Positions 30,562 to 62,890 of a stretch of DNA of 64,000 nucleotides are shown here, one piece after another (the first letter of the stretch is position 1; the number at the start of each line of letters is the position of its first letter). The notes under the pieces were generated by a model, which was not told the DNA's origin, did not search any database, and saw nothing but the letters and a program-made list of their open reading frames with translations. The DNA is from Thelephora terrestris. Its lineage: Eukaryota; Basidiomycota; Agaricomycetes; Thelephorales; Thelephoraceae. The translations under genes were made by a program, and so were the position numbers. The stretch spans positions 3,348,001-3,412,000 of the forward strand of contig WIUZ02000002.1 in assembly GCA_015956445.1 (NCBI GenBank), written 5' to 3'.

Positions 30562-31331
30562 AGCGTGATCATCAAAAACTGGCCGCTGAAGCAATTCTGC
30601 AACCCAAGTGCCGTCGCCACTCGCCTTGAGCTGGAGCTCCTCTTTAACTCGTGGGCGTTGGGGGCAACACGATTCCACAAGCTTTCCAAGGACAAAATGT
30701 CTGCCTGGAAGACCAAACATTTTTCGTCTCAAATTGCAATGATGCCATCACTGCCCTCTGCTTCCATTCCAGTTGCCCCTTTGCCAACAGCTCCCTTGGC
30801 TCCCCCCGCTCCTGATTCCCTGATTCTTTCCACCTCCGTGCAATCCCTGGAATCAGTACCCTCCGTTATCACCCCAACAGAAATGGTACTATTCTCTGAG
30901 CTTGCTGACCAGACCGCCTCACAGCCAGTACCCAATGATGTCGGCCAAGGTGCCACTTCAATCGTGCTGTCCAATACTCAACATCAACTGCCCCCACCCG
31001 ACCCCAAACTGGTTGCAGAAATCATTCGCCTCGACCCCACCTTGCAGGCGATCGACCCTGCACTCATCATGGCGGGTGTAACCCAAGGCTTTTACCATCC
31101 GGCAACCATCACCTCAGTAAACCTCAATCACCCTCCTCTCCCCGCTCCCCCCATTTCCCAGAAGAAGCGGAATCGGGGGGCATTCGAGATTGTCACGCCG
31201 CAGTCGTTCAGCGCACGTTCGACCAAGAAACCACGCAAGGAGCAGAGGGGAAAGCAGGCAAAAAAAACACGCCTGTGACGGACGGATAAAATACCCCCCC
31301 GGTTGGGGTTATGTGATTACTCGTACTTGTT

Positions 31332-31421
31332 GAATATCTTGCTCCCACCGAATATCTTGTTCCCGCCGAATATCTTGTTCCCGCCGAATATCTTGTTCCC
31401 GCCGAATATCTTGTTCCCATC
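31332..31421. repeat. 18-bp minisatellite, 5 copies
   Basis: GAATATCTTGTTCCCGCC is repeated five times. The first (GCTCCCACC) and last (TTCCCATC) units are slightly changed. It lies just downstream of the HMG-like gene's stop, inside the KDZ element. Confidence 0.9.
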
Positions 31422-37577: not shown

Positions 37578-38285
37578 GGCAGCCGTTCGATGCACAAGGC
37601 GCGATGTTGGGGGAGATCACTTGCTGTTCGAATACCGGAGGACACAGGAGAGGGGGGTTGACAGACGGCTATAAGGTGAGCTGGCACCCGTGAGAAAATA
37701 TCAAGGTCCAACAAATAGACCTGTCACGTGGAGAGGAAGGCCCGTGCCACCTCGCCTTTACACGCCCTCACCGCGAGGGGTATTAGGTAGAATTTAATTG
37801 ATAGTATTAAATGAACGCTCAGACACATATAATATTCAAAAATTACAACACTCGTGTACTCGAACTGCAGTGTGTCGCAGCCTGTGTACTCTTGTCATCA
37901 CTATTACACTATCCATCAAAACCGTATAGGGGTGTTTGAGGTTTTCACGCAATACCGCTTACTAACGTGCAAGTGTGATCGGCCGATTGTATCGGTCCGG
38001 CGAGCAAGGTTTCGGCCGACGAGCAAGTAGTCTAGACCACCGGTAAGGCCCGGAAGTTCGCTCCCACGGAAAGTCCAGCAAACGAATCACGTGGGGTTCG
38101 ACTCTGGGATTTTTGGGACCACGTGAGGGCCTTACCAAAAGAGCAAAAAAAAGTGTTGCCATATTAGGGTTTTTTCGCGAGGCAACTCGGAGTGAAAGAT
38201 GCGCTCAAAATTTCCCCTCTCTAGGCAGTGTACACCTGTCTCTTTACACCCTCTAGTGAGGCGTCAATCGTGTGAGAACGAGGTG
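37532..38285 (-). repeat. Right terminal inverted repeat of the KDZ element (754 bp)
   Basis: Near-perfect reverse complement of 23730-24483. It carries the ATG (37577, minus strand) of the transposase and, presumably, its promoter, identical to the one driving the opposite gene. The 95-bp inverted-pair structure lies at 38042-38136. Confidence 0.9.
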
Positions 38286-40706: not shown

Positions 40707-41283
40707 AGGTTCAGCCAAAGTCGATTTCCGCTTTTGGTGAGGGCTGAGTGACCGCGGTCCACAATCCTGTCATTCTCACTTGGAACCTTTTTCATCTCAA
40801 GCTGCCTACTCACCAAATTGTGCAAATGTTGATCACTGGTGTGGAGCCTCAGCAACTCAGGATTCAACACAAGGCCTCGAAAATTGACTCAACTATAGCC
40901 CATGCATCAACACATGGTTCACATATTGCAATTGTTACACCCCCTTGTATCTCATCTCCATTGCCCCTTGAGGGATACTTCTTGGTGGCTGGGGGAAGGA
41001 TTGTTACTCCTTCTCCAGGTGGGAAATGGAAGGGGTTCAAGAGTAGTTTGCTGAGAGCCCTATGGAGAGGGATACTGCAGATGGATTGAAGAGCAAAGGT
41101 ACAAGTAGTGTGACAAGAGAGAGTTATGGGAATGCCCTTCCTTCAGAGTCTGTAATGGAGAGTAAATCAGACTAACTATGACAAGGAATACTTTTATATC
41201 CATTTCTGATTTCCTCAGACTAAGAGCAGTGATACTTGGTTTGTATTGCATTAGCACTCCTTCCTATCTATTACATGTCTAGT

Positions 41284-44200
41284 CTACATCCTGTAACGCA
41301 GCCAATATATTCCAGGTTGCTCCTCAGGGTAAATGTGGCAGAAATCCAAAATCAAAACCTCCCCAGTTCTATAGCCAGCAACTAGATACTGACCATCCCA
41401 CTGTGCCACCAGAGGGTCTGCATACCTCCCAGACAGCTGGAAAACCACTTTTCCGGTGCGATTATCCTTAATCCTGGGAGGTTTATCAATAAGGCCAAGA
41501 TGACATCTCTCTGAAGGTGTGTCTGGCAATGGAGTAGGGGCAGAGCCTGAGATTCCAAAGTCCCACCCCTGAATTGAGGAGTCCTGAGGTGAACCCCAGA
41601 TTTTTGAACCATCCAAATAGTGAAGATTTCCTATTAAATTCACTTCTGACTTGGTGGTACCCTTGGGCTCCCCTGTCCACATATCCCAGGCTCGAATGGG
41701 TTCATTGGACCACAGGCCAAAAAGCTTAGACCCATCCACTGATATCTTCAGGCTGCATTGAGAATATAATTTCTCCACATTTTGCTTGCAGAGGGATTTA
41801 GCTGTCTCAGTTGCCCAGATCTGAATTTCATTATCACCGGTTTCACAAGCTGTGATCAGCTCCCCATCTATCAGTTGAACATCTCTTCGGGAGCTTCTAG
41901 CTGGGGTCTGGAAGGATGCTTTGCAGAGGCCAGTGAAAATATCCCAGGTCTTTGCCACTCCATCTTTATCACTTGAGATAACAATCCCATCTCTTGGTTG
42001 TAGAGTGATAGAGAAGATTGCAGGTGGGATGAGCGAAGTGGACTGGTGATCAGAGATGACTGGGTCTGTTGCAGAACCACCAATCTGCCAGAATCTGATT
42101 GATTTGTTCCCAGATGCCAAGATGAGAACAGAGGGTACAGAAAATGCCATGGCTACAAATGTACCTGGTAGATAAAATCGCTCCATGGGGTGAGAATTTT
42201 GGCTGGTGATGTCCCAAACATAGATTTCAGACCTAGTGGCAACTGCAACAAGCCTGCCATCAGGGGAGAAACAACATCGTTGGGCATCACCATTGGCTAT
42301 ACGGAATTCAGCCATGGTTGTTCTGGTATCAGAGTGCTGGATTGTAACGACATTTTTATTGCACAAAACACACTGAGTGCCATCTGGGGAGAAAGCAAAG
42401 CAATAACAATCCTGTGTTTGTCCAGTCTGTTGACCATTGGTATTCAATTGCCAAACTTTTAAACCAGATACAGATATGAGGCATTGGGGGTCTGCGGGGG
42501 AAAATGTAACATAGGATATTTGCTTCTGTAGCTCAATAAGACGATGGCCCTGCCAGGTCTCAATATTCCACAAGAAGATGATTCCATCAAGATCCCCTGA
42601 GACAATCATGGTAGAATCTCTTGAGATGGAAACAGACATGACAGAACATTTGTGGCCATAAAGGGTCTCAACAACTCCACCAGTCTGCACATCCCAGACC
42701 TTCACAGTCTGATCATAACTTCCAGATACAAGTAACACCCCATCTGATGAGAAGATGACAGATCTAACTGAATCGGTGTGTCCAAAAAGAACAGCTACTT
42801 GGCTGCCAATGATTGCATCTGAAATAACAACATCTCCATCCCACAGACCAACTGCAATAAAGTTGTTCCAGTTTGAGATTGCAAGTGGAATACTAGCAAA
42901 AAGAACTGGTCGGGAACTGCCCCCCCATTCAACTGGGAGCCCTTTGACTACCTTGACTTCATTTGAGAACTCTGCACGGTACTGCTGATTAATCCATGAT
43001 GAAGAAGGAGAAAACGGGAGGGCAGAATGATATATCTGGGAAGGGGAGTGGTGGATTGCATCAAAATGCTCCAACAGGAAGTATTGAGTATCATTGGCCC
43101 ACATGCACAAAACTCCTGCCTGGATATTCATTAATATGGGTCTCAGCAAAAATTTGGAAGAGAACTTACTGAATCACACCATTGCTTAACATCATTCATG
43201 GCATACACTCCAGTGTCAAGGTTCCCTGTAAGGACAAGGACTTCTATCCAATCCAACAAGCTCGTTGTACAAAATTCATTCATTGCCTTCTCTATTTCCC
43301 TGACATAGGAACTGCTTCCAATGGTCCCCAGAAGGTGCTTTGTCCAAAACTGGCATGCATATTTCAAGGCATCACCAATTTTATCTGTTTCTTGAGTAGA
43401 AAGGTCCTTGACCTCAACAAAGTCATCAAGGCCACAAATGTTCCTCTTCAGCCTCTCCTTCATCAACTCCAGGCATGAAAGCAAGATTTTTGCATGAATC
43501 TCTGGTTCCACCACAAGCCATTGGTTCCCACACCTTTTAGTGTCTGTGAGGAAGTCAGGAAATGACTTGTGGAAGGCTCGAATAGGACCATCTGTTGTTC
43601 CTGCATCTGGCACAATGAGGAGAGAATGGAGGGAACGGAGGGTGGTAAGGATTTTGGATGTTTTGAGGAGATCTGAGAGTGCCTTTGCTGTGAGAGGGTT
43701 AAACACCAGCACCACAGTCCCAAGGACAATCTTGAAAGAGGAGGATAATTCTTGGTCACTTGAATCTTCTTCATTGAGTGCTTGTTTCAGGACTTCATTG
43801 TAGAGCTGATCAATCCCTGATTTTCCTTCATGGGCAGTGTCTTGTGGGAGAGAGGTGATAAGAGTGAGCCTCTCAGTGGGAAGGTGTTTTGGGGATGCAA
43901 CAAATTTTATGACTGTGGAAGCATAGATAAACAGGCCAGCAGCCTTTTTGCAGAGAGCATCAATATCAGATGAAGCTGGCCATGCATGTGTGAGGCTACA
44001 GTCGCTTCGTGTCTTGGCAACCTTGGCTAACTCGGTCCTGAAATAAAGCTTGATATCTGTATCCACAGATGACTGTTTGACCTCATGCAGTTTGAGCACT
44101 TCTGTGATGGGGTGGAGTGACGCAAGGCGGAAGCCAGAGCGGATTCGAGGTTCAGGACGGCCAGTGATGAAGAATTTGACATTGGGTATCTGATCCGTGT

Positions 44201-45977
44201 AGCGGGAGAGGATGGAAAGGATGGCAGAGGCAGGTTCTTCATCCTTGCACTCGTCAAGGGCGTCAATGACGATGAGGGTTGAGATGGGGGAACCTGTGAA
44301 TGGGCCAATGATGAGTTTCTCCATCTGGGAGCAGAGAGACTCCCGCCCAACATCTGGGATTGCTTTCAAGACCTGCAACAACTTCCTGCGAAAAGGGGGA
44401 TACTTGTGGGCAAGCTGGAAGGCAAGAGTTGGAAAGATCTTCTCAAGGTTACTCCGGTCTGCAAAATCCCGTGAGCAGAAGAAGCTTGCCCCGAGTTTTC
44501 CATCCGCAAAGCTTGTTTCGGCAAATGTTTTGGCAAGAGTGGTCTTTCCTGTTCCGGCCAGGCCATTCAGCCAGAAAACACGTTTGTCTCGCCTGTCCAT
44601 CAACCAGCATTGGATCTCTCTGAGTACATCCTGCCTTGTTCCCTTCAGGCATCCCTGCCTGTTCCCACTGCTATAGCCGGCACCTGGAGTGTGATACATC
44701 CTGTCAAGAAGGGCAAGGTCCGCAAGTTCCTATCCATTGATCAACACACAAGCATGAGGAGCAAGGAAGTAGGCCTTACAATGAGCTGGCAACTCTTGTT
44801 GTAAATATCCTGCTGTAACAAAGTCTGAAGCAAATGTCAGAGGTGCTGAAGATGCAGGTATTGCCAAAACAAACCTGATAGTGAATCATTGCATCGCGGA
44901 TGTCCTCAACGAGTCCGCGAAGTTTATCTGCGTTGTCGACATTGGTGAAAAAGCCTTCAACCTTTCCTTGTTCCATCAATAGGTCTAGATCTCGGTGAAC
45001 GTCTAGCAATTTGCTAGAGATTTGGACATCAGAGTCATTGCCTAGGATTGGAGGGTATGAACTTACCGTTCCAAAACACCTCTCCTCGATTGTTCGTCGA
45101 TATCGCCCTGAGAAACGGGCGCGTAAAGCAACTTGGCAACTTCCTGGACCCGAGGTGCTAACGATTCTATGGATTTTTCGTTTGCCTTCGTTCGCTGGTG
45201 CAGCTGTAAGTGGTGTGGATCGCGAGTGCGGGAGAAGGGCTGTACCTCATAATTTTCCAATATGAAACAGAGACCTCCGGCAACGGACTTGAGCGGAACG
45301 AATGAATCTGCTGACTCTCTGACCCCAAGGAGTATTGTCTTGGCTGCAGAATACGCGAGGGACTTGAATTTCCCGGTAGCCTTGTCAGCATCTACCGCCG
45401 GCGATTCTGTTATGAGATCCGGGGGTCCTGTGTGTGCGCCTTGTTTTTCGCTGGAATCAGGCTGGAATTGAGTGGAAGTGGAGGGGAGATCTGGGTAGCG
45501 CAAAGAAGTATGATTAGAGGGATGCTCTGGGAAGAAAATGGCCGCATACCGTTAGAGTTCTGATCGTGAGAGGCCGAGGGCTCGACTGGTTGCAGAGTCG
45601 GGGCACCAATGTCGGGATCTGGTGCTGGACCGACAATACGTGGTGCGACCGTGTTTTGTTTTTTGCTGGAATCAGGCTGGAGTTGAATAAAAGTGGAGGG
45701 GGAATCTGCGTCGCGCAAAAAAAGCACGATTAGACGGATCTCCTTAGAAGTGAGAAGTGAATGGCTGCGTACCTTTGGTATACGGAATGCGAGAGGTTGA
45801 GGGCCCAGGAGTCGGTGGGTTCAGGTCACCGATGGAGAGATTTGGTGCTGACCCTGTGGGACGCGACGCGACGGGTTCAACTTCGCTTGGCTCCCGGACG
45901 AGGCCTGTCTCGCTCCTTGCTCTGCTTCGTTCTCGCAAACGGTCTCTTATTCGGTGGAAAAATTTTCGCAATCCCAT
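41284..45977 (-). CDS. NACHT-WD40 NLR receptor, copy 1
   Basis: A predicted protein of roughly 1,400 residues starts at 45977 (MGLRKFFHRIRDRLRER). Exons 2 and 3 each begin with a related motif (DSPSTFIQLQPDSSKKQ; DLPSTSTQFQPDSSEKQ). A helical N-terminal domain follows (ATGKFKSLAYSAAKTILLG, ADSFVPLKSVAGGLCFILEN). The NACHT part has GCLKGTRQDVL, Walker A GLAGTGKTT, Walker B LIVIDALDECKD and FFITGRPEPRI. A GTAAGT...CCAG intron after QWCDS leads into about nine WD40-like blades (GHTDSVRSVIFSSDG, VKVWDVQTGG, IRAWDMWTGE), ending at 41284. Fungal NLRs of this plan are self/non-self receptors: WD40 senses, NACHT oligomerises and the N-terminus signals. No lesion was found in the joins I checked. The WD40 half is visibly AT-richer than the 5' exons. 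Confidence 0.85.
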
Positions 45978-47125
45978 GCTGTCGTGAGTTCGGTGTTGAT
46001 GATGGGCTGATAAGAGATAGATGGCCTCGTGGCCCCATTCCGTTCTGGGAAGATACTAGACGCCGGAAAATATTCAAGTTTCTACCGTCTGCAAGAGGCT
46101 CGCATCTCATGCCGGTCAAATGACATCCTCTCTTTCGCATTTCTCTCACTCTCCGGGGTTGTCGAACGCCCAATGCCGATACTTGAGCTTGATAGCCCAC
46201 CCGATTCCGACAGACTCGTGCGATTGCCGGTCGACCCCTGGGCGCGGCCTTTGTTGACTCCGAATCTGTTACCGCCACTTTCTAACAACCAACTTTTATT
46301 CACACGTCCTCACCGACAACAACGAATATGGCTCCGTCTTCGGACTGTTCGCCGAAGCTGCATCTGACTCACGCGTGTGTCCAGCCCCCCCTCATTCTCT
46401 GTACGCAAGTCCTGGGCCATAGGGTTATTCTTCATTCCATCCATGGCTTTGTTTCACGTTATCTATTTGTCAGCAGGGAAAACCTAAAGACGTCCGAACG
46501 TTCAACGAAAGCCTCCCTCTGCCAAATGCCGGAAGCCTGCCATCCGCAAGAAACCCACGACCCCCGCCGTCTAAGCGAGCCAAGAGGCCTATCGTCTCAT
46601 TTGTTACGCCCCCCTGTGACAGATGAAAGTTTGGGCCCTCTCGAGTCAGGAGGCTTTCCTTCCCTCTCTTCTCCCAGGAATACCTCCGATTGTTTTCGAT
46701 CAGCTTGAGCTTTAAAAAGGGGACAGACTAAGCTGTATTGAGGGTTGAGTGAGATTAACTCAAAATTCGGTTGTTTCTCTATCAGCTCCGTAGCGAATCA
46801 TCATCGAGTAATCGAAGGCTTCATCTCAACACACTAAATGTTGCCAGCGTACGCGTACTGAGGGATCTCAATACCTGACGGACAGTGGGGATCAATGTCG
46901 TGCTCTCAGGGGGAAGTAGCATCCCATGAGCCCCGCATTTCACTCTCCGACGGTTTTCGTTGGGTACGAGTCTTCTTGATTGTTTCCAGCTTTGTGGCGG
47001 AGAGCCAGGGACCTTCTTGCGCATCGAGAAGCCGACCACTCGTGAGTCTTCGTAACCCGATCCTAAGAGGAACCCCGGATGAATTTACGAGATAGAGAAA
47101 CAAAGACGCGACAACTTGAGGCCCC
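45978..47125 (+). other. Shared upstream region of the NLR unit (copy 1)
   Basis: Conserved in inverted form at 52571-53735. It must hold the NLR promoter. A divergent frame reading RKPPSAKCRKPAIRKKPTTP is present in both copies (near 46510 here, near 53150 on the minus strand there). In copy 2 it continues to KRAKRPIVSFVTPPCDR and a stop, whereas copy 1 has one extra C and ends early. It may be the last exon of a small basic protein transcribed away from the NLR; I cannot identify it. Confidence 0.35.
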
Positions 47126-48629
47126 AAACGTCAAGTGGGATCTCCAACCGTCGCGCCGGAAACGTATCCACAACTTACGAGCATCTCGATGGATTGTTCA
47201 ATATCCGGGACGCGATTCGTCCTCGCGGCAGGTGCAACTCCCAGGACAAGAACTCATGCAATCCTCGTTACCGGTACCGTTTCCGCAAGAAAATTCGATT
47301 CAAATCCCATGCAAACTCTTGATTCTCGTCCGTTTCCCCCCTCCAGCATTTTCATCGCTTTCATTCGCTCCCTTGGAGGGGAGCAACGGACTGAGTCTGC
47401 TAGCGCTGGACAACGTTCTACTTATCGGGAAACGCTTCGTCGGCAAAACGCGGCAAGAACTGCACAAAAATCATCCCCAGGGTACAATCCAATACGCTGG
47501 CCAATCGTATACCGGGAGATCGATCAGCTATCTTCCCTGGAAACGTCTGTCCCCTTTCCCCGTGTGGGTCCGCCACGAATGACTCGTTCGAGTCCACCGC
47601 ATCAGATCGGAAGTCGCCCACCTCGTTCTCTCTCCCCTCCACAACTTACGAGTTGAGCTTAAAACCACTCAGGCCTGCCACCCACACTGCAAGCCGTCCC
47701 ACGAGAACGGGTGGCCAGCCGCCCGTTCGTTGGAATGCCTCGGTCTCGTCGCTGGCTTAGCGTACCGTAACGCCAGTGACATGGACGACCTTGAAATTCT
47801 CCCCAATCAGCGGAGAAGCGTTTTCGGGGGGGGGGAGGGTTATACGAGATCAAACCGTAAATAGTGGATGTGCTGAAAGCCGCTTTCATTAGCCATGCAC
47901 CCCTCGTGACCCCGACGAACAATGGATTTCGACCGTCGGTGGCACGGGTAGCCCATACCCCCTGGATGCCAGTGTGCTCGATCCTGACTCCTGGCTTTGG
48001 TGATGATCGGCGGGGCCTTCATCACGCCCGTAAGGGAGATCGGACCCGTTGTGCTTGGACAAGCCGTGCTCCAATTTTCGAGATGAATAGTCCTACTGGG
48101 ACAAAACATAACGACTGAAATTTAGTGGAACTAGATTGACTGAGTGTCAGTTCGTTTGTGTCGCCCTCTAGGTAAGTGCCCTACGTTCAGTGACCCTCAC
48201 CGACCGAAACTTCCGGATCGGTGCAGTCGGGATTCCCTTGGATCCAACACACAGGTTTTCTATTATCAATGGGATCCTTTTTTCTACACCACTTTTTGTC
48301 TCATTGGAAACGGACGGCGAGCAAGCCTGTATGTTGAGATACCTTTGACCGTGTCGGGCTGATGAATTGGGCCTGGTACCGCCCGCCATACCCATTGCAG
48401 ACCACGGCCTGGTCCCCCAGCCCACGCCTTGCTGTTCTGAACCTTGTTTTAAAGCTTGGAACAAAGCCGCCACTCCGTGGCTCTCGCAATTCGGTGTTCA
48501 CGGTGACCATCTCCGTGGCGCCGGACCTCGATAATCAATGCCTGGGCCCTTGTTTTCACGGCGAGTTTACGGTCCACTGCGCCTCCCCCCTCGGTTTTTT
48601 GGCACTTTTGAAGCTGCGCTCCTGGAATC

Positions 48630-48637
48630 TATAAATA
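48630..48637 (+). promoter_or_regulatory. TATA box of the P2 kinase remnant
   Basis: TATAAATA lies 102 bp before the ATG at 48732, matching the arrangement in P1. Confidence 0.6.
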
Positions 48638-48731
48638 CTGGGTGGGAAGGGTATGCGTTTTCCCTCACTTCCCAGTTCCCTTCTATCCTCACACACCTGT
48701 CAAATTTAACGGACAACAAACATACTCAAGC

Positions 48732-49500
48732 ATGCCCCGACCCGATCGAAGCAAGTTAGCACGCTTGACTTGTGAAGAACATTCTTTCCTGGGCGACAGT
48801 GGTTGTACGCCAGGGAGACTCTCCACCAACCGGAACCGGTAAGGGGTCTCTCGGTGGATACGGCCGGTTGTGGTACGTTGTGGTCTGTAAGTTGCCTCCA
48901 TCCCTATCCTCCCTTCCGGTCGAGAGCAATATTCTAATCCAGTCCCTCCCACCCCCTCCATCCACCGAATTCGCGTGAATGGTAGTGGGCTTTAGGTTGA
49001 TTCTCCCAAAGATCTGATGGCAAGGTCGTAAAAAAACAATATCCAAAAGTTCGTAATCTACCGTGTTACCGATCCAAACTTTGCCCCTTACCTTTGTCCC
49101 TTCCTCCCGGGTGCGCTTCGAATTCTACCAGCCCTCCAGGTATGCCTCGTTCTCTCTCCCATTCTTCGTCTTATGCGAGACGATGGGTCGAGGAGTGAAA
49201 CTGATCCGCGGGTTTCACCATTCTTCACCTAGCCAATACTACCACAACCACAACCAAAACCACGAGTACATCGGCCACTACGAGTACATCGGCCACTACC
49301 ACAAGTGCATCGACCAGCACGTCAACTTCGACGCAGCAACCATCCACGGCAGGGTTAAGACCAATTCAGCCCAAACCGGCAGAGCAGCCCAAGTACGTGC
49401 TGTTGTTCCCCGTTCTTGGTCTAAGCATCACAACTAATGCGCATAATTCCATCACAGACCGGCGGGGGAACCTCCCAGGTTAAGTCTAAGAAGAGCAAGA
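48732..49500 (+). pseudogene. Kinase-unit 5' exons without a kinase domain
   Basis: Exon 1 (MPRPDRSKLARLTCEEHSF, 48732-48838) ends at the same GTAAGG donor as in P1. The later Thr-rich stretch is present around 49220-49400. No HGDLK, DFG or other kinase motif follows, because the core is deleted. If transcribed, it would give only a short truncated product. Confidence 0.6.
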
Positions 49501-50904
49501 AACGTGAACAAGAAACTTGAAGACTTCCATAGAGACGCCAGTCACTATCGTCGTCCACGAACGTTCCCCGATCCGCTCTCTCAGGCGGCCAAGCCCTTGC
49601 ATCATGGTCATTCATCGCACGGCTTCCGCCCACAACCCTTCCCTTCTCATGGAAACAAATTTATCGCATCACCGCCTGGTTTCGATTCTATTTAATGCTG
49701 GTGCTACTAGTTTGTGTTACAAACCTTCCTCATGTCATTCCCGATGACTCGCAATAAGCTATCTTTTCGACAACTAGAACTTGTGATGAGTCTTCCCCCA
49801 ATTACACCCTCGATTTCTGGGTGCGTATTTCAATGGTGACTGCACCCAACGGTTCTGCCGTTACCGAACGCTCATGCCTCTGGGGAACTTTCAATTCCTT
49901 AACCGCGATTCAGGTTACTCGCGTCTGCGCCCGCCGCCTTAAGATTCGGGACGGTTCAAACGCGGGCAGCGAACGCAACCTTTCTCTGATGCTCCAATCG
50001 GCCGTGATGTACCTCCTGGCTCATCGCCTGGAAGCCACGTAGAACTTGGGTAACGATATCATCACCGGCGCTGGTGATTGTCGTCGCATTGCCTTATGCA
50101 GGTAGCGACTGAGTGAGAGGGTCAATACGAAACGTCGAACACAACCACGTCAACGGTTCTGCATGCAGGCACCTCAAATTTCGGTGGGTGACGTCCGTGG
50201 CTACATCGGATAACCTGTGTCGAGGAGTCGAGGCCAGCTGGAAAATTTCCCCCGCCATACGTACTCTACGCTGTTTGATGTCGCTTCTATCGTGAGATTA
50301 GCGCTCGGAGGTCTACGCATTTTCAGCTCAGCCTAGGGGATTCGCATCGGGGAGGTACTGTACGACATCCAGTTGTCCACACCGTCCCGGGCCGTTGGAA
50401 AGAACGCGGGGTTGGATCGCCAAAAATGATGAAATCTGTGAGGTGAGTGACGGACATCGAGAGAGCATACGGGTCGTATGGACGGTCAGTTTCGAGAGAG
50501 AGAAGTCTCCTACGGTAAACAGCGGCAGTTGATGGAGGTGGGGAGGTTCAGCCAAAGAGTGCTGGCCAGGACCACGCGTCACGATCCCATCATCCTAGAG
50601 CGCACGAGGCCAGCTGGGCCCGCTATGGGCCGTGTCATGCGTAATGGAGACGGCAAAGAGCCGGATCGGAAGCAAGTCGAGATCTGACAGCGGACTGTGA
50701 GTTCGTTCCAAGGGATTTTACGGCCCACGGCCTTTTTCATTTCAAGATGGAGGTACATGCATAAAGAGGTCGGTGAGAGTCGGACGTTCGGGAATTTTAG
50801 CCGCCTGGGTTGAGCGCGCGCGTAAAGCGACAAGTGGACATGGCATTGCTATCACGCGCGTTTGCTATGTAGTGGACAAGAAGAGAAGGGGGGGAGAGAT
50901 GAGT

Positions 50905-51426
50905 TTAGTTGGATTTGGGTTTTTCGCCGGTCTTCTCCTCGAGCTTGGCCTGTGTATTGCGAGAAACGTGTTAGTTCGAGTGGGGGTGTCAATGGAGGGT
51001 GGGTTGCGTACGAGTTCCTGCTGTTTGGCATCGATCTGTTAAAGAGAAAGAAGTTGGTCTTGTGGTCGAATATAAAGAGCAGTAAGAAGCACACGAACCT
51101 CCTTCCTCAATTTCGCAAGCTGTTCGAGCTCGTGTTGGCGTGTGTATTGGTCTACGTGACACGGGTATCAGTAAGCGCAACCGCAGAAGTCCCACAAGAT
51201 ATGGTACCTTCATGGGCTTTCTCCTTCTTCCTACAAAAGGCAGAGGGGTCAGAGTGCTGCGTGTAAACTATGATAGTGATCCACGAGGAACGAGGACTGA
51301 CCTGAATCCCTGAGACTGAGCGACGGAGCCCTCTGAGTAAACGTTAGAGAGACCGCGGGCGAGCATTGGAGTCGCAGTGGCGGAGAATCGACGAGCGACG
51401 GAATTTCGGATTGCGATGGAGAACAT
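50905..51426 (-). CDS. INH1: Mitochondrial ATP synthase inhibitor IF1 (IATP family)
   Basis: Five exons join without loss of frame: 51426-51302, 51230-51208, 51151-51099, 51035-51012 and 50949-50905. All introns are GT-AG, and the predicted protein is 89 residues. Residues 1-25 or so form a mitochondrial presequence (MFSIAIRNSVARRFSA). The inhibitory region reads YSEGSVAQSQGF then KKEKAHEDQYTRQHELEQLA, the IF1 signature. The C-terminal coiled-coil is LAKLRKEIDAKQQELAKL, ending EKTGEKPKSN. IF1 binds F1-ATPase when matrix pH falls and blocks ATP hydrolysis. It is transcribed away from ATP14, with 183 bp between start codons. Both are single-copy genes caught between repeat units. Length and motif order fit the family well. 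Confidence 0.9.
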
Positions 51427-51609
51427 TGGGTTTGGCTGTGAGTTTGGGAAAGCGGAGGGAATGTGGTTTTCGTCCTGTTTCCGGCCCCGTGCGTACAGAT
51501 CTCGGTTCGAACCGGGGGTTTATTCCAGTTGGCGCCTGGATTTCTCTCCGGCTTCAGCTGCTCCTCGTTGTAATTTCTCCTTCAAACTCTCTCTCTCGAT
51601 CCTTTCGTC
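51427..51609. promoter_or_regulatory. Bidirectional promoter between INH1 and ATP14
   Basis: Only 183 bp separate the two divergent ATG codons, so both 5' UTRs and promoters must lie or overlap here. No TATA box is obvious. The segment contains pyrimidine-rich text next to the ATP14 start (CTCTCTCTCGATCC). Co-regulation of an ATP synthase subunit and the enzyme's inhibitor is an inference from geometry. Confidence 0.55.
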
Positions 51610-52196
51610 ATGTCTTTTGTCGCCAGGCAAGCCCTCTCGGTTGTGCGTATCCCAACTCGAAAAGCCGAAGTTCCAGAAAATTTACCAAATTTCTCTCTCT
51701 CGGTTTTTAGACACGGACTGCTTCCAGGTCCTCTAGGCTCCTGTCATCCTCCTCCGTCCTCCGGAAAGGTCAACTCCCTCCCCCCTAGAATCTACAGACG
51801 CGGCCCAGACACTCAATTGCAACGTGTAGATTTTGTTCAGGACATGTACCTCAAGGAACTCAAGGTTTACAAGCCAGCGCCAAAGGTACATACCACACGG
51901 GTCCTTTCATCTTCTCAACACTCACTCGGGGAAACCTTTTTCACTTTCGTCGTTCGTTCTAGGCCGCAAATGACCACGTCGGTTCCGTAAAAGAGTTCTC
52001 TGCTCCCGCTCCACCTCAGGTTCCTGCCCTCCCCACCGACCTCGCTTCGGAACTCGCCCGATACGATGCCACCGAACCTGTCTCCGCTCCCTCCGTTACC
52101 TCCGCCGAGGGTGGCCACGCCACATCCGAAGCGACTGAGGCTGACGCGTTTTTGTCCTTCCTGGAAGCTGACGTTCCAAAAGAGGTTCACCACTAG
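51610..52196 (+). CDS. ATP14: Mitochondrial F1F0-ATP synthase subunit h
   Basis: Four exons join in frame: 51610-51642, 51711-51768, 51830-51885 and 51963-52196. The predicted protein is 126 residues. The presequence is MSFVARQALSV plus TRTASRSSRLLSSSSVLRK. The mature start reads DFVQDMYLKELKVYKPAPK, the family signature. It is followed by DHVGSVKEFSAPAPPQVPAL, DLASELARYDATEPV and an acidic tail ADAFLSFLEADVPKEVHH. Subunit h is a peripheral-stalk component of the fungal enzyme at the inner mitochondrial membrane. All three introns are 61-77 nt with GT-AG ends. The gene looks intact, although it is embedded in the repeat island. Confidence 0.9.
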
Positions 52197-53735
52197 ACCT
52201 TCAGGTTTCCGCCCCTGCTTGGATCCGGAGGGAGGAGTTGGTATGGCATTGTGTCGCGTAGGTTGACAGAAAATAGAAGTCGCCATTCTGCGTTTCTTCG
52301 TTCGCCAGAATTCTGGATTCGTGCCCCTCAAGGCGTTCAAGATAGCCATTTGCTCAAGATATTCCACCTTCTCTGTGGCGACTCAACGTCATGAAGCATT
52401 CGTCAATGTCACTCAGTGAGATAAGCATTAGCACCGACAAGCGGCGTGGCTCACGACCGGCTTCCGGAATCAGGACCCGAGGGCGTGACTTCTTTCAGAT
52501 GGTCAACGAACTCAAACACCGTCGATTGGGCTTTTGAGATCCCTTGGCTAAACGCCCCACGACCTCTATTGGGCCTCAAGTTGTCGCGTCTGTCTCTCTA
52601 TCTCGGAAATTCATGCGGGGTTCCTCTTAGGATCGGGTTACGAAGACTGACGAGCGGTCGGCTTCTCGATGCGCAAGAAAGTCACTGGCTCTCCGCCACA
52701 AAGCTTCCCCCTGAGAGCACAACATTGATCCTCACTGTCCGTCAGGTATTGAGATCCCTCAGTACGCTGGCAACATCTAGTGTTGAAACGAAGCCTTCCA
52801 TTACTCGACGATGATTCGCTACGGAGACGATAGAGAAACAACCGACTTTCGAGTTAATCTCACTCAACCCTCAGTACAGCTCATTCTGCCCCCTTTACAA
52901 AGCTCAAGCTGATCAAAAACAATCGGAGGGATTCCTTTGAATATCGCGAGTAGGCTGAACCCGGTACCCTCAGCACAGTGTCATGTAGCTCCCAAGGGCC
53001 AATAGAACCAGGTCATGAGGGCAAGAGAAGGAAGGAAAGCCTCCTGACTCGAGAGGGCCCGGACTTTCATCTGTCACAGGGGGGCGTAACGAATGAGACG
53101 ATAGGCCTCTTGGCTCGCTTAGACGGCGGGGTCGTGGGTTTCTTGCGGATGGCAGGCTTCCGGCATTTGGCAGAGGGAGGCTTTCGTTGAACATTCGCAC
53201 GTCTTTACGTTTTCCCTGCTGACAAATAGATAACGTGAAACAAAGCCATGGATGGAATGAAGGATAACCGTATGGCCCAGCAAATCAACGGTTCTAAGAC
53301 CTTGCGCACAGAGAATGAGGGGGGGCTGGACACACGCGTGAGTCAGATGCAGCTTCGACGAACGGTCCGAAGACTAAACCATATTCGATGTTGTCGGTGC
53401 GGACGTTTGAAGAAAAGTTGGTTGTTAGAAAGTGGCGGTGACACCAGACTCGGAGTCAACGAAGGCCGTGCCCAGGGGACCACCAGCAATCGCGCGAATC
53501 TGTCGGAATCGGGTGGGCTATCAAGCTCAAGTATTCGTATTGGGCGTTCGACGACCCCGGAGAGTGAGAGAAATGCGAAAGAGAGGATGTCATTTGACCG
53601 GCATGAGATGCAAGCCTCTTGCAGACGGTAGAAACTTGAATATTTTCCGGCGTCTAGTGTCTGCCCAGAACGGAATGGGGCCACGAGGCCATCTATCTCT
53701 TATCAGCCCATCATCGACACCGAACTCACGACAGC

Positions 53736-56700
53736 ATGGGATTGCGAAAGATTTTCCACCGAATAAGAGACCGTTTGCGAGAACGAAGGAGGGCAAGGAG
53801 CGAGACAGGCCTCATCGGGGAGCCAAGCAAAGTTGAACCCGTCGCGCCGCGTCCCACAGGGTCAGCACCAAATCTCCCCATCGGTGACCTGAACCCACCG
53901 GCTCCTGGGCCCTCGAGCTCTCGCATTCCGTATTCCAATGGTACGCACCCATTCACTTCGAAGTTCTAAGGAGATCCGTCTGATCGTGCTTTTTTTGCGC
54001 GACGCAGATTCCCCCTCCACTTTTATTCAACTCCAGCCTGATTCCAGCAAAAAACAAAACACGGTCGCACCACGTATTGTCGGTCCAGCACCAGATCCCG
54101 ACATTGGTGCCCCGACTCTGCAACCAGTCGAGCCCTCGGCCTCTCACGATCAGAACTCTAACGGTATGCGGCCATTTTCTTCCCAGAGCATCCCTCTAAT
54201 CATACTTCTTTGCGCTACCCAGATTTCCCCTACACTTCCACTCCATTCCAGCCTGATTCCAGCGAAAAACAAGGCGCACACACGGGACCTCCGGATCTCA
54301 TAACAGAGTTGCCGGCGGTAGATGCTGACAAGGCTACCGGGAAATTCAAGTCCCTCGCGTATTCTGCAGCCAAGACAATACTCCTTGGGGTCAGAGAGTC
54401 GGCAGACTCATTCGTTCCGCTCAAGTCCGTTGCCGGAGGTCTCTGTTTCATATTGGAAAATTATGAGGTACAGTCCTTCTCTCGCACTCGCGATCCACAG
54501 CACTTACAGCTGCACCAGCGAACGAAGGCAAATGAAAAATCCATAGAATCGTTAGCACCTCGGGTCCAGGAAGTTGCCAAGTTACTCTACGCGCCCGTTT
54601 CTCAGGGCGATATCGACGAACAATCGAGGAGAGGTGTTTTGGAACGGTAAGTTCATACCCTCCGATACTAGGCATCGACTCTGATTTCTAAATCTCTAGC
54701 AAATTGTTAGACGTTCATCGAGATCTAGACCTATTGATGGAACAAGGAAAGGTTGAAGGCTTTTTCACCAACGTCGACAACACCGATAAACTTCGCGGAC
54801 TCGTTGAGGGCATCCGTGATGCAATGATTCACTATCAGGTTTGTTTTGGCAATACCCACATCTTCAGCACCTCTGATGTTTGCTTCAGACTTTGTTACAG
54901 CAGGACATTTACAACAAGAGTTGCCAGCTCATTGTGAGGCCTGCTTCCTTGCTCCTCATGCTTGTGTGTTGATCAATGGATAGGATCTTGCGGATCTTGC
55001 CCTTCTTGACAGGATGTACCACACTCCGGGTGCCGGCTATAGCAGTGGGAACAGACAGGGATGCCTGAAGGGAACAAGGCAGGATGTACTGAGAGAGATC
55101 CAACGCTGGTTGATGGACAAGCGAGACAAACGTGTTTTCTGGCTCAACGGCCTGGCCGGAACGGGAAAGACCACTCTCGCTCAAACATTTGCCAAAACAA
55201 GCTTTGCGGATGGAAAACTCGGGGCAAGCTTCTTCTGCTCACGGGATTTTGCAGACCGGAGTAACCTTGAGAAGATCTTTCCAACTCTTGCCTTCCAGCT
55301 TGCCCACAAGTATCCCCCTTTTCGCAGGAAGTTGTTGCAGGTCCTGAAAGCAATCCCAGATGTTGGGCGGGAGTCTCTCTGCTCCCAGATGGAGAAACTC
55401 ATCATTGGCCCATTCACAGGTTCCCCCATCTCAACCCTCATCATCATTGACGCCCTTGACGAGTGCAAGGATGAAGAACCTGCTTCTGCCATCCTTTCCA
55501 TCCTCTCCCGCTACACACATCAGATACCCAATGTTAAATTCTTCATCACTGGCCGTCCTGAACCTCGAATCCGCTCTGGCTTCCGCCTTGCGTCACTCCA
55601 CCCCATCACAGAAGTGCTCAAACTGCATGAGGTCAAACAGTCATCTGTGGATGCAGATATCAAGCTTTACTTCAGAACCGAGTTAGCCAAGGTTGCCAAG
55701 ACACGAAGCGACTGTAACCTCACACATGCATGGCCAGCTTCATCCGATATTGATGCTCTCTGCAAGAAGGCTGCTGGCCTTTTTATCTATGCTTCCACAG
55801 TCATAAAATTTGTTGCATCCCCAAAACACCTTCCCACTGAGAGGCTCACCCTTATCACCTCTTTCCCACAAGACACTGCCCATGAAGGAAAATCAGGGAT
55901 TGATCAGCTCTACAGTGAAGTCCTGAAACAAGCACTCAATGAAGAAGATTCAAGCGACCAAGAATTATCCTCCTGTTTCAAGAGTGTCCTTGGGACTGTG
56001 GTGCTGGTGTTCAACCCTCTCACAGCAAAGGCACTCTCAGATCTCCTCAAAACATCCAAAATCCTTACCACCCTCCGTTCCCTCCATTCTCTCCTCATTG
56101 TGCCAGATACAGGAACAACAGATGGTTCTATTCGACCCTTCCACAAGTCATTTCCTGACTTCCTCACAGACACTGAAAGGTGTGGGAAGCAATGGCTTGT
56201 GGTGGAACCAGAGATTCATGCAAAAATCTTGCTTTCATGCCTGGAGTTGATGAAGGAGAGGCTGAAGAGGAACATATGTGACCTTGATGACTTTATTGAG
56301 GTCAAGGACCTTTCTACTCAAGACACAGATAAAATTGGTGATGCCTTGAAATATGCATGCCAGTTTTGGACAAAGCACCTTCTGGGGACCATTGGAAGCA
56401 GTTCCTATGTCAGGGAAATAGAGAAGGCAATGGATGAATTCTCTACAACAAGCTTGTTGGATTGGATAGAAGTCCTTGTCCTTACAGGGAACCTTGACAC
56501 TGGAGTGTATGCCATGAATGATGTTAAGCAATGGTGTGCTTCAGTAAGTTCTCTTCCAAATTTCTGCTGAGACTCATATTAATGAATATCCAGGCAGGAG
56601 TTTTGTGCATATGGGCCAATGATACTCAATGCTTCCTGTTGGAGCATTTTGATGCAATCCACCACTCCCCTTCCCAGATATATCATTCTGCCCTCCCGTT

Positions 56701-58423
56701 TTCTCCTTCTTCATCATGGATTAATCAGCAGTACCATGCAAAGTTCTCAAATGAAGTCAAGGTAGTCAAAGGGCTCCCAGTCACATGGGGGGGCAGTTTC
56801 CGACCAGTTCCCTTTGCTAGTTGTCCATGTGCAATCTCAAACTGGAACAACTTGATTGCAGTTGGTCTGTCAGGTGGAGATGTTGTTATTTCAGATGCAA
56901 TCATTGGCAGCCAAGCAGCTGTTCTTTCTGGACACACTGGTTCAGTTAGATCTGTCATCTTCTCATCAGATGGGGTGTTACTTGTATCTGGAAGTAATGA
57001 TGAGACTGTGAAGGTCTGGGATGTGCAGACTGGTGGAATTGTTAAGACCCTTCATGGCCACAAGGCTATGGTCTTGTCTGTTTCCATCTCAAGAGATTCT
57101 ACCATGATTGTTTCAGGGGATGACAATGGAATCATCTTCTTGTGGAATATTGAGACCTGGCAGGGCCATTTTGTCATTGAGCAACAGAAGCACATATCCT
57201 ATGTTACGTTTTCCCCCACCGACCCCCAATGCCTCATATCTGTATCTGATTCCAAAGTTTGGCAATTGAATACTAAGGGTCAACAGACTGGACAACCCTA
57301 TGATTGTTCTTGCTTTGCTTTCTCCCCAGACGGCACTCAGTGTGTTTTGTGCAATGAAAGTTTAGTCACAATCCAGTGCTCTGTTACCAGAAAAACTATG
57401 GCCAAATTCCATATAGCCAATAACCATGCCCAACGATGTTGTTTCTCCCCTGATGGCAGGCTTGTTGCAGTTGCCACTATGTTGCAAATCTTTGTTTGGG
57501 ACATCACCAGCCAAAATTCTCACCCCATGGGGATATTTTGTCCATCAGGTGTATTATATGGCCTGGCATTATCTGCACCCTCTGTTCTCATCTTAATATC
57601 TGAGGGCAAGTCAATCGGATTCTGGCAGATTGGTAGTTCTGCATTGGACCCAGCCATCTCTGATCAAGAGTCCACTTCATTATTCTCACCTTCAATCTTC
57701 TCTATCACTCTACAACCAAGAGATGGGATTGTTATCTCAAGTGATCAAGCTGGAGTGGTAAATATCTGGGATATTTTCACTGGCCTCTGCAAAGCATCCT
57801 TCCGGACCCCAGCTGAACACTACTCAAGAGATGTCCAACTGATAGATGGGGAGTTGATCACAGCTTGGAAGATCAGTAATGATGGAATTCAGATCTGGGC
57901 AACTGAGAGAGCCAAATCCCTCCACAAGCACAAGGTGGAGGATTTAGGGTACAACATCCTGAAGATATCAGTGGATGGGTCTAAGCTTTTTGGCCTGTGG
58001 TCCAATGAACCCATTCGAGCCTGGGATATGTGGACAGGGGAGCCCAAGGGTACCACCAAGTCAGAAGTGAATTTAATAGGAAATCTTCACTATTTGGATG
58101 GTTCAAAAATCTGGGGTTCACCTCAGGACTCCTCAATTCAGGGGTGGGACTTTGGGATCTTAGGCTCTGCCCCTAATCCATTGCCAGACACACCTTCAGA
58201 GAGATGCAATTTTGGTCTTATTGATGGACCCCCCAGGATTAAGGATAATCGCACTGGAAAAGTGGTTTTTCAACTGTCTGGGAGGTATGCAGACCCTCTG
58301 GTGGCACAGTGGGATGGTCAGTATCTAGTTGCTGGCTATAGAACTGGGGAAGTTTTGATTTTAGATTACTGTCACATTTACCCTGAGCAGCAACCCGGAG
58401 TATATTGGCTGCACAGGTGGTAG
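53736..58423 (+). CDS. NACHT-WD40 NLR receptor, copy 2
   Basis: Same exon plan as copy 1. It has MGLRKIFHRIRDRLRER, the repeated exon motif DSPSTFIQLQPDSSKKQ / DFPYTSTPFQPDSSEKQ, the helical domain, DLADLALLDRMYHTPGAGY after a GTGAGG...ATAG intron, Walker A GLAGTGKTT, LIIIDALDECKD and FFITGRPEPRI. The GTAAGT...CCAG intron after QWCAS leads into AGVLCIWANDTQ and the WD40 blades. Between copies the first 510 NACHT-exon residues differ at only about 20 sites. The WD40 part differs at many more, in clusters: VLSGHTGSVRSV here versus VLFGHTDSVRSV; SGSNDETVKVWD versus SGSYDQTVKVWD; TLHGHKAMVLSV versus TLYGHKCSVMSV. It ends at 58423 (VYWLHRW). No lesion was seen in the joins checked. Confidence 0.85.
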
Positions 58424-58714
58424 ACTAGACATGTGTTAGATAGGAAGTAGTGCTAATGCAATAAAAACTAAGCATGACTGCTCTCAGTCTGAGGAAATCG
58501 GAAATAGATATAAAAGTATTCCTTGTCATAGTTAGTCTGATTTACTCTCCATTACAGTCTCTGAAGGCAAGCATTCCCATAACCCTCTCTTGCCACACTA
58601 TTTGTACCTTTGCTCTTCATTCCATTTGCAGTATCCCTCTCTATAGGGCTCAGCAGTTTCCTCTTGAACCCCCTCCCTTTCCCAACTGGGGAGGAGTAAC
58701 AATCCTTGGAGTTG

Positions 58715-58731
58715 CCCCCCCCCCCCCCCCC
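58715..58731. repeat. Poly-C run of 17
   Basis: Uninterrupted run of C in the 3' flank of NLR copy 2. The inverted copy has only CTCCAGGTGGG-like sequence at the matching place near 41015, so the tract expanded after duplication or is a length error. Confidence 0.85.
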
Positions 58732-58948
58732 AGCCACTCTCCTTTGCTTTCTCTCCAAAAAGCATCCCTCAAGAGGCAATGGAGATGAGATATGAGGGGG
58801 TCTAACAATTACAGTGTTTGAACCATGTGTTGATGCATGGGCTATAGCTAAGCCAAGTTTTGAGGTCTCATGTTAAATCCTGAGTTGCTGAGTGTTTGCA
58901 CCAGTAATCAACATTTGCACGATTTGGTGAGTAGGCAGCTCAAGATGA

Positions 58949-59760: not shown

Positions 59761-60357
59761 CTAGTGAATGCCGTCAGTCACCAACCCGTCAATTTGGAAG
59801 AAGGGGTGCTTGGCGCACCTTTCACACGCCCAGGAACTGAAGCGATCAGAAGCATCCCCAGAGTAAGGGTCGTTTTCGAGGCGGTCAACGATATGGTCGT
59901 GGATTTCGGTGTAGGCGGGCAAGGTCTTGAGACAGTCGAATTTCCTCTGGACGTAGTTCCCACTTTGCCACTCTTCGAGGGCAGCTTGGTACTGTGGGTG
60001 GGTTTGAGGTGTGAACTTAAGGGACTCCAAAATAATAAACGGACGTACTGCTGTTGCGGCGAAAGCAACCATTACGACGGTCACTGAAGCCAACCACTCG
60101 CTGTCTTCACTCGGGTTAGACTGTTTGAGGGCCTGTTTCCATTTCTCCTCCTCGTAGAAACTCCTGCAAAGCTTCTCAAGGATTGGATGTGCGAAGAGGT
60201 CACCCTGTAGGGGTCGTTAAGCGTTAAAGGATGGAGGGGAGTCAACACTCACGTCGACACTTGGAGGATCATTGAGGAATGCGAATTGCGCAAGGCGAGA
60301 GGCAACAGTAGCACGAACATGGTCAGGACTGTGGAGGAGTTGTTCGGACTTGGCCAT
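59761..60357 (-). CDS. DUF6532-like protein, short form
   Basis: A minus-strand start at 60357 (MAKSEQLLHSPDHVRATVAS) runs to FLNDPPSVD. A GTGAGT...ACAG intron follows. Exon 2 has GDLFAHPILEKLCRSFYEEE, KWKQALKQSNPSEDSEWLAS, VTVVMVAFAATAV, YQAALEEWQSGNYVQRKFD and a C-terminus DGLVTDGIH at 59761. The order (helical start, 'HPIL..' block, hydrophobic stretch, 'ALEEW.TG' block, helical end) is that of DUF6532 proteins. These are abundant in Agaricomycetes, often near transposons, and of unknown function. It is shorter than usual at the N-terminus, so it may be 5'-truncated. Its start lies only a few bases from the Plavaka fragment reading the other way. Confidence 0.55.
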
Positions 60358-60362
60358 GGACT

Positions 60363-61248
60363 TCTTTGGTCGCACGGGTTGCGTCAGAAGGAACTAGTAC
60401 AAGTGTTCCTCGGCCACTGTGCGCCATTGCAACTTCATGGGCTGTGTTCAACGTCAACCGCAAGCCGGACATCCCTCGAATCTCCATTGATGCCCTCGCT
60501 GAGAAGTACAAGCTACCAGACCTTCGCCCAGCCCTCCTCGACTTCTTCTCCCAGTGGTCCAACGACCCCTTGTTCCATTCCATTGGCGGTCGGCGTGGAA
60601 CTCACACAAACGCCCGACTCCCCTTCACGAACGTCATTGTGTGGTATTCAGTTCGCATACAGACATACTCCTTGGATGACAAATCTGTCACAAGCCCTCG
60701 ACGCCTCAACGCGACACCTCCCTGTGACTCATGGCCCTTTGGACGGTATGACACCGCACTGTTTGCCCACAGCAATGTGGATCCTGCACTTTCTCCGGAT
60801 GTTGGACTCGCTGGTAAGTCCGCCTGCGCTTATCCACCCTCCTGACCACCAACATCACTTTGCAGGATATGATATTTCCCAAATTCGACTGATCCTCCAC
60901 CTGATCTGGGATAGGGAGGTCCCTGATGCACCATCATACCTGGTCTACGCCCAACGATTCAACATCATCCCTCAACTCACCTCCATTCCCCCTACCCATG
61001 CCGCCATTCCCAATCCCGTCACCGGCCTATATCTTGTCAAACGTGCACTTCGTGCGGATAAATCGCGCATTGGAGACATCATCCCCCTTTCCCACTGCCG
61101 CGTACCCATTCAGCTGGTTCCTCGATTTGGCGCGAAAGCAGATGCCCGAATTACCAGTAGGAATAGTATGGAGTGGAGCAGGGAATTTTTTCTAAACACG
61201 TACTTTGACAAGGACATTTTTCAGTATTTACGAGGCTCCCGTCTGTAA
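60363..61248 (+). pseudogene. Plavaka-family transposase, C-terminal fragment
   Basis: The frame from about 60366 reads CAIATSWAVFNVNRKPDIPR, ISIDALAEKYKLPDLRPALL and NVIVWYSVRIQTYSLDD. A GTAAGT...GCAG intron at about 60813-60864 leads to YDISQIRLILHLIWDR and YLVYAQRFNIIPQL. The characteristic end follows: QLVPRFGAKADARITSRNSM then NTYFDKDIFQYLRGSRL, with a stop at 61248. This is the C-terminal region of Plavaka (CACTA-superfamily) transposases. The N-terminal catalytic half is absent, replaced by the divergently transcribed DUF6532-like gene, so this is a remnant. Confidence 0.7.
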
Positions 61249-61953: not shown

Positions 61954-62890
61954 CACTGGGGACAAGCCCCTACTTACTGAATAGGTACTTTGTGAATACA
62001 TTGTAGTTCCATGTCCAATGTACTGACATTTTGCTGGGCAAAAACAAGCTGAGTCCTTTCAGAATGTACAGAACAGTAACTATTACTTCCCAGCTCAGTA
62101 CATTGTGGAAACATTCAAAAAGTACTGAACCATGTGACCACAATGTCCCTGATCAGTAATCGCTCAGTACTTTTTGATTGTCCCAAAGAAAGTGATCAAC
62201 AAGTGCCTGCGCTGCACGTTGTGGTTTCAATCAAAATTTACTGGGTCATGTAACTACAAAATATCAAACTGGTGAATGCTGAGTACTTCTAGAATGTCCT
62301 GGGCCCATGTGTCCAAATTTTACACGAGTGGCTCAAAGAAAATGTGATCACAAAGTACTGAGACTGGGTAAATACTGAACACTTTGAAAGAAACCAAAAT
62401 ATACTGAATTGTTTAAAAACTACTGTGCAACGATTCAGTATATTTTGGTTTCTTTCAAAGTGTTCAGTATTTACCCAGTCTCAGTACTTTGTGATCACAT
62501 TTTCTTTGAGCCACTCGTGTAAAATTTGGACACATGGGCCCAGGACATTCTAGAAGTACTCAGCATTTACCAGTTTGATACTTTGTAGTTACATGACCCA
62601 GTAAATTTTTATTGAAACCACAACATGCAGCGCAGGCACTTGTTGATCACTTTCTTTGTGACAATCAAAAAGTACTGAGCGATTACTGATCGGGGACATT
62701 GTGGTCACATGATTCAGTACTTTTTGAACGTTTCCACGATGTACTGAGCTGGGAAGTAGTAGTTACATTGTTCTGTACATTCTGAAAGAACTCAACTTGT
62801 ACTTGCCCAGCAAAGTGTTAGTACATTGGACATGGAACTACAATGTATTCACCAAGTACCTGGTCAGTAAGTAGGGGCTTGTCCCCAGTG
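61954..62890. mobile_element. 937-bp foldback element with CACTGGGG ends and 3-bp duplication TCT
   Basis: The whole element is one long inverted repeat with arms of about 455 bp around a short loop near 62410-62432. It starts CACTGGGGACAAGCCCCTAC and ends with the exact reverse complement. TCT flanks it at 61951-61953 and 62891-62893. The arms match closely but not perfectly. It codes for nothing. The ends and duplication size match the 221-bp MITE, suggesting mobilisation by the same CACTA/Plavaka-type transposase. Confidence 0.9.

What the first reader, a model, noticed from the sequence alone, without database searches (positions are those of the whole stretch)
41284..58423. Inverted NLR pair: conserved NACHT and N-terminus, divergence focused on WD40 surface positions
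Seen: two NLR genes in inverted orientation with near-identical NACHT parts. The WD40 parts have multiple replacements confined to short positions such as GHTDSV/GHTGSV, GSYDQT/GSNDET and LYGHKCSVM/LHGHKAMVL. Known: in HET-D/E/R-type fungal NLRs the residues on one face of the WD40 propeller are the hypervariable recognition sites. Inferred: these are paired receptors whose sensor halves are diversifying while the signalling halves are kept alike by recent duplication or gene conversion.
Basis: partly seen in the sequence, partly recalled or inferred. Interest (0 to 1): 0.75.

Follow-up and report, generated by a model that had tools for sequence, protein, structure and literature searches.

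The report
Twin fungal immune receptors diversifying sensors
Two mirror-image copies of a fungal immune-type receptor gene keep the same signalling half while one face of the sensor half changes fast, in the same places as in the self/non-self receptors of the mould Podospora, and the sensor exons of their wider gene family seem to be traded between genes.

Summary
Two open eight-exon genes (A, minus strand, 1433 aa; B, plus strand, 1431 aa) lie head-to-head in an inverted duplication. Each encodes a conserved N-terminus, NACHT and WD40. NACHT exons are 95% identical in protein, WD40 exons 82%. Silent divergence is similar (dS 0.073 and 0.106), so the likeness of the NACHT halves needs only purifying selection. 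In the WD40 exon dN equals dS, but on the top-face loops of the modelled propellers dN is 0.26 against 0.04 on the bottom face. Variable sites peak at the repeat positions reported under selection in Podospora HET-D/E (7, 9, 25, 27).

Most likely these are cytosolic NLR receptors whose double propeller reads a variable ligand. Ligand, effector and species are unknown.

The parts
40792..47124 (-). arm A of the inverted duplication, holding gene A
   Evidence: self-comparison
52571..58948 (+). arm B of the inverted duplication, holding gene B
   Evidence: self-comparison
47125..52570 (.). spacer between the arms; its part 47125-50544 resembles 19270-23729 at 67-80%
   Evidence: no Pfam match for the three spacer frames scanned
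41284..43119 (-). gene A exon 8: WD40 double propeller (sensor), ends at the stop codon
43170..44729 (-). gene A exon 7: NPHP3_N/NACHT
44780..45977 (-). gene A exons 1-6 (45773-45977, 45550-45705, 45246-45490, 45067-45194, 44875-45013, 44780-44812): N-terminus
53736..54933 (+). gene B exons 1-6 (53736-53940, 54008-54163, 54223-54467, 54519-54646, 54700-54838, 54901-54933): N-terminus with basic start and a duplicated Pro-rich piece
54984..56543 (+). gene B exon 7: NPHP3_N/NACHT
56594..58423 (+). gene B exon 8: WD40 double propeller (sensor), ends at the stop codon
56813..57958 (+). stretch of gene B exon 8 (residues 74-455) that holds every top-face A/B difference listed
53983..54224 (+). 242 bp identical in A and B, possible conversion tract

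Best explanation
A and B are inverted duplicates of a fungal NACHT-WD40 receptor gene (a STAND/NLR protein). Shown: both genes are open; N-terminus and NACHT are under purifying selection; replacements in the WD40 exon gather on the top-face loops of a modelled double beta-propeller, at positions matching those under selection in Podospora HET-D/E; the same positions vary in the in-genome family and in 49 outside relatives; WD40 and NACHT exons of the family have different histories. Inferred: the top faces bind a variable ligand (a protein of another strain, a virus or another microbe); binding opens the NACHT switch, the protein oligomerises and the N-terminus starts a defence or cell-death output. 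New specificities arise by point changes kept by diversifying selection and, in the wider family, by exchange of modules between loci, so that similar signalling halves carry many different sensors.
For: Open gene models in both copies. dN/dS 0.31 in exons 1-6, 0.28 in NACHT, 1.00 in WD40. Top face dN 0.260, bottom 0.041; top pN above gene-wide pS, p=1e-10; single-hit codons on the top face 35 nonsynonymous to 3 synonymous, rate ratio 3.3, p=0.017. 0 of 457 mask shifts match. Entropy of 49 outside relatives peaks at the HET-E codons (HET-E codons from PMC1805685 passages). Eight disjoint other pairs: top pN 0.159, bottom 0.036, exon pS 0.098. WD40 and NACHT distances uncorrelated in 14 genes, each tree rejected by the other exon. 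Fold: WD40 structures, and Apaf-1 over both propellers.
Against: Tested against the silent rate of the same zone instead of the exon, the first propeller of A/B alone is not significant (p=0.18), nor are the 36 HET-E-type codons (p=0.13). In the eight other pairs the single-hit top ratio is 0.78. Second propeller modelled with moderate confidence, pTM 0.51. No alleles, no expression data, no effector domain recognised, no ligand. The mask was made after I had seen the A/B differences.
Confidence: 0.75

Rival explanations
1. Relaxed constraint: after duplication the WD40 halves became partly dispensable and exposed loops drift neutrally.
For: Whole-exon dN/dS is exactly 1.00; some own-zone tests do not exceed 1; single-hit top ratio in eight other pairs is 0.78.
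Against: Strands and bottom face stay constrained (dN 0.067 and 0.041); frames are open in A, B and, over the stretches read, in 20 of 20 relatives; single-hit excess in A/B; multi-hit codons 139 of 1175 on top against 26 of 2279 in bottom/strand; the bottom face, also exposed, does not vary.
Confidence: 0.15
2. Import from diverged donors: the divergent part of one WD40 exon came by ectopic conversion from another family member, so the A/B contrast is borrowed, not accumulated in place.
For: Recombination between modules is clear in the family; top-face pS of the first propeller is raised (0.163 against exon 0.099).
Against: A and B group together in both exon trees; silent WD40 divergence is not significantly above NACHT; no donor among the 20 relatives read is closer to A or B than they are to each other.
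Confidence: 0.15
3. A and B are a co-working head-to-head receptor pair of the plant kind (sensor and helper).
For: Divergent orientation; other close family neighbours seen lie in the same direction as each other.
Against: Same architecture, no extra domain, 7.76 kb between start codons, many unpaired relatives.
Confidence: 0.07
4. Assembly artefact: two haplotypes joined as an inverted repeat.
For: The locus is 49-67 kb from the end of its contig; many such fungi carry two nuclear types (recalled).
Against: A 5.4-kb spacer unlike the arms separates them and the similarity fades on both outer sides; related copies of comparable or greater divergence lie on other contigs. Reads were not available.
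Confidence: 0.05

Closest known systems
HET-D/HET-E/HET-R (HNWD/NWD) family of Podospora anserina
   Same: NACHT followed by WD40 propeller; variation at repeat positions 7, 9, 25 and 27 on the top face; WD40 sequences that mix across NACHT lineages (PMC1805685 passages; PMC2873952 passages).
   Different: No HET domain match at the N-terminus; blades 20% alike, no WD40-length tandem array; exchange seen at exon scale, not between repeats of a gene; codons 6 and 26 also vary here.
NACHT-WD40 NLRs of basidiomycetes as surveyed by Dyrka et al. 2014 and Wojciechowski-type follow-up PMC9815663
   Same: Domain order; WD40 prevails in basidiomycota; N-termini mostly unannotated (PMC4986451 and PMC9815663 passages).
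   Different: The passages I read describe repertoire and repeats, not this contrast between exons or the top-face pattern in non-identical repeats.
Apaf-1
   Different: NACHT-type rather than NB-ARC-type NTPase by Pfam score; diversifying sensor. Likeness of fold only.
Head-to-head NLR pairs of plants (recalled)
   Same: Divergent neighbouring NLR genes.
   Different: Here both are near-twins of one duplication, without an integrated domain and without shown joint function.

Membership tests
Fungal NACHT-WD40 NLR (STAND) | NACHT-type NTPase | tested here: met
   NACHT 42 bits over cut-off 26.7 and NPHP3_N 106 bits in B; 39 and 103 bits in A
Fungal NACHT-WD40 NLR (STAND) | C-terminal WD40 propeller in the same gene | tested here: met
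   Pfam WD40 83 and 99.5 bits; spliced models (no transcripts); model and structure match
Fungal NACHT-WD40 NLR (STAND) | N-terminal effector domain | tested here: inconclusive
   No Pfam family at E<=10 for the spliced N-terminus; conserved in relatives
HET-D/E/R (HNWD) family | N-terminal HET domain | tested here: not met
   No Pfam match at E<=10
HET-D/E/R (HNWD) family | highly conserved internal WD40 repeats (over 85% in PMC4986451) | tested here: not met
   mean 20%, maximum 31% between eight blades of B; no WD40-length tandem array
HET-D/E/R (HNWD) family | diversification at codons 7, 9, 25, 27 of the repeat, top face | tested here: met
   entropy and A/B differences by position; pN 0.342 at 36 such sites against exon pS 0.099, p=5e-8, but p=0.13 against their own pS; blades placed by hand
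HET-D/E/R (HNWD) family | concerted evolution of WD40 across NACHT lineages | tested here: inconclusive
   WD40 distances independent of NACHT lineage in 14 genes, but replacement of NACHT parts would look alike
HET-D/E/R (HNWD) family | incompatibility with a partner locus | not testable with these tools
   needs crosses or expression
Plant-type head-to-head NLR pair | unlike partners, one with an integrated sensor domain | tested here: not met
   same exons and domains in A and B
Plant-type head-to-head NLR pair | joint function | not testable with these tools
   needs deletions

The most novel reading that the evidence does not exclude
The WD40 exon is an interchangeable sensor cassette of the genome: ectopic recombination with breakpoints in the last part of the NACHT exon keeps at least 14 sensors in one pool while three diverged NACHT lineages carry them; blades recombine in register and selection acts on top-face residues. 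This would be a repertoire generator that works without the unstable near-identical repeats of Podospora.
Probability: 0.4. Interest if true: 0.7.

Novelty: new variant of a known kind. Interest (0 to 1): 0.52.

Why it matters
The best-understood fungal self/non-self receptors diversify through near-identical WD40 repeats that recombine within and between genes. Here the same surface positions diversify in propellers whose repeats are too different for that, and sensor exons are decoupled from NACHT exons across a family of more than twenty genes. If strain data confirm it, diversifying recognition would not depend on repeat instability, and a little-studied class of fungal NLRs would become a testable recognition repertoire.

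Tried and rejected
Subtelomeric exchange: several family members lie near contig ends, but none of the 45 exact four-unit TTAGGG matches lies at an end of a contig whose length I saw, and contigs C6, C34, C25, C10 and C18 have none; lengths of C2, C3, C8, C13, C56 and C58 were not seen. I do not claim it.

A GLTP target as for HET-D/E: two GLTP matches in the genome, on C1 and C13 and not on the window's contig; not informative.

Naming the N-terminus: Pfam to E<=10 gave nothing, PDB sequences only rows at E 0.075 or worse. A MLKL/HeLo-like bundle is a lead from the abundance of such domains in basidiomycetes (PMC9815663 passages), untested.

NACHT exon against PDB sequences: no match at E<=0.1.

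Polarising A/B changes with L039-L041: 45 of 57 top-face differences are ambiguous because the outgroups vary too, so rates for each copy were not possible.

Prior work: searches (open-access library) listed Podospora work and surveys of fungal NLRs; in the titles, abstract starts and passages I saw, none describes this pattern in a basidiomycete. Seen: PMC4986451 (outline with abstract, passages), PMC1805685, PMC2873952, PMC9815663 (passages); all others in listings only. The species is not known, so 'basidiomycete' is my guess from gene content (recalled).

Full report
What is there. The window is bases 3348001-3412000 of contig C12 (3.46 Mb) in an unnamed 40.6-Mb genome of 60 contigs. No tool named the organism; short introns and the NACHT-WD40 expansion suggest an agaricomycete (recalled, not tested). 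The span of the finding, 41284-58423, runs from stop codon to stop codon of two genes that point away from each other inside an inverted duplication with arms 40792-47124 and 52571-58948. One gene model of eight exons and seven GT-AG introns fits both copies with identical intron lengths: A 1433 aa, B 1431 aa; no transcript was available. Exon 7 carries NPHP3_N/NACHT, exon 8 WD40. Exons 1-6 give a basic start, a Pro-rich piece whose DNA is repeated at a 215-bp spacing, and a part without a Pfam name. In 18 of 18 close NACHT loci (L011-L028) a match to that unnamed part is found, and in 12 of 18 also to the first exon at 42% identity or more.

Divergence between the copies (NG86). Exons 1-6: dS 0.082, dN 0.025. 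NACHT exon: dS 0.073, dN 0.020. WD40 exon: dS 0.106, dN 0.106. Synonymous proportions of exons 1-7 and of the WD40 exon do not differ significantly (7.3% and 9.9%, p=0.16); nonsynonymous ones do (2.2% and 9.9%, p=4e-22). Introns differ at 22 of 392 sites. So the contrast lies in replacements, not in age. One stretch of 242 identical bp in the 5' part is longer than expected (p=0.0014, 5000 permutations).

Match to Podospora. Paoletti et al. 2007 report codons 7, 9, 25 and 27 of the HET-D/E WD40 unit under positive selection, on the top of the propeller (PMC1805685 passages). With nine or ten blades set on the same numbering by hand, outside entropy is 2.62, 3.04, 1.53, 2.40 at codons 6-9 and 2.66, 1.86, 2.20 at codons 25-27, against 0.42-1.78 at the other 17 positions tabulated. 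A/B differ in 6, 7, 2 and 5 of 10 blades at codons 6-9 and in 8, 8 and 5 of 9 blades at codons 25-27. So codons 6 and 26 vary here too, whereas codon 26 is under purifying selection in Podospora; some of this may be my placement. Unlike Podospora, the blades are 20% alike on average and no WD40-length tandem array was found.

The family. Searches of the same genome gave 82 NACHT-exon and 70 WD40-exon matches, both lower bounds. I read the WD40 exons of 20 relatives (the 20 best matches after A and B), 18 of them with a NACHT exon. Over the stretches read, 20 of 20 WD40 exons have stops only in the preceding intron or at the end, and 18 of 18 NACHT exons have none in the aligned part. WD40 dN/dS exceeds NACHT dN/dS in 190 of 190 pairs, which are not independent. 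In eight disjoint pairs, top pN is 0.159, bottom 0.036, strands 0.037 and exon pS 0.098; pN against own top pS (0.134) is only slightly higher. Codons with two or three changes fill 139 of 1175 top sites against 26 of 2279 bottom and strand sites, but the single-hit top ratio is 0.78. So dN above dS is less firm for the family than for A/B, while the contrast between faces is firm. The 22 copies have 22 distinct top faces, the closest two 27 of 150 residues apart.

Sensor and engine are decoupled. In 14 genes (L042-L051, L053-L055, L057; L052 left out as an outlier, L056 and L058 for want of a NACHT exon, the A/B group as another clade), NACHT silent proportions have median 0.27 (0.008-0.405), WD40 0.115 (0.056-0.172); NACHT is significantly larger in 68 of 91 pairs, smaller in 3; their rank correlation is 0.035. 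With genes grouped by NACHT lineage (three groups drawn after I saw the NACHT tree), between-lineage pS falls from 0.50 at the start of the NACHT exon to the within-lineage level near codon 421 and stays equal through the WD40 exon (0.116 and 0.117 overall). Each exon's tree is rejected by the other exon's data, 20 genes (AU p=4e-53 and 1e-5), though support inside the WD40 clade is low. Neighbouring sites are more compatible than permuted ones in both exons, 0 of 1000 permutations, a sign of recombination. An extreme case is L047/L049: 2 NACHT and 81 WD40 residue differences. Whether sensors moved or NACHT parts were replaced is not resolved; either is module exchange. A and B group together in both trees, so they show duplication followed by diversification rather than exchange.

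How it most likely works. Shown: a conserved NTPase half, a diversifying propeller top, modular histories in the family. Inferred from fungal NLR biology: binding at the propeller faces releases the NACHT switch and the N-terminus starts a defence or death output. The main rival is relaxed constraint; against it stand the constrained bottom face and strands, the open frames and the single-hit excess in A/B.

Verdict. Observation confirmed; interpretation partly supported (diversifying sensor yes, conversion-kept signalling half and paired function not shown); new variant of a known kind.

Noticed in passing
23730-38285: A 14,556-bp element with 754-bp inverted ends 99.5% alike and an apparent 8-bp target duplication (GATGGGGA); the related spacer copy near 50544 has the unfilled site. 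Looks like a young DNA transposon, perhaps of the KDZ kind (recalled); four of its frames had no Pfam match.
   Followed up: partly
19270-23729 and 47125-50544: Old direct duplication at 67-80%; the second copy is most of the spacer between the two receptor genes.
   Followed up: partly
61954-62890: About 940 bp that match their own reverse complement at 94%.
   Followed up: no
59761-60216 and 60312-60845: Frames matching DUF6532 and DUF6830 beside gene B.
   Followed up: no
G000: C1, C2, C3, C12, C13, C23, C56, C58, C59, C60: TTAGGG arrays lie inside contigs, often as pairs facing outward 0.9-9 kb apart, as if they bound a short element.
   Followed up: no
L026/L022 (WD40 exons L049/L047): Two receptor genes on different contigs whose NACHT exons differ by 2 residues while the WD40 exons differ by 81: a sharper case of the same contrast than A and B.
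   Followed up: partly
G000:C12:2727888-2734502 and G000:C29:21431-28033: Two NACHT matches with equal scores and nearly equal spacing on two contigs, in opposite orientation: a recent large duplication or an uncollapsed haplotype.
   Followed up: no
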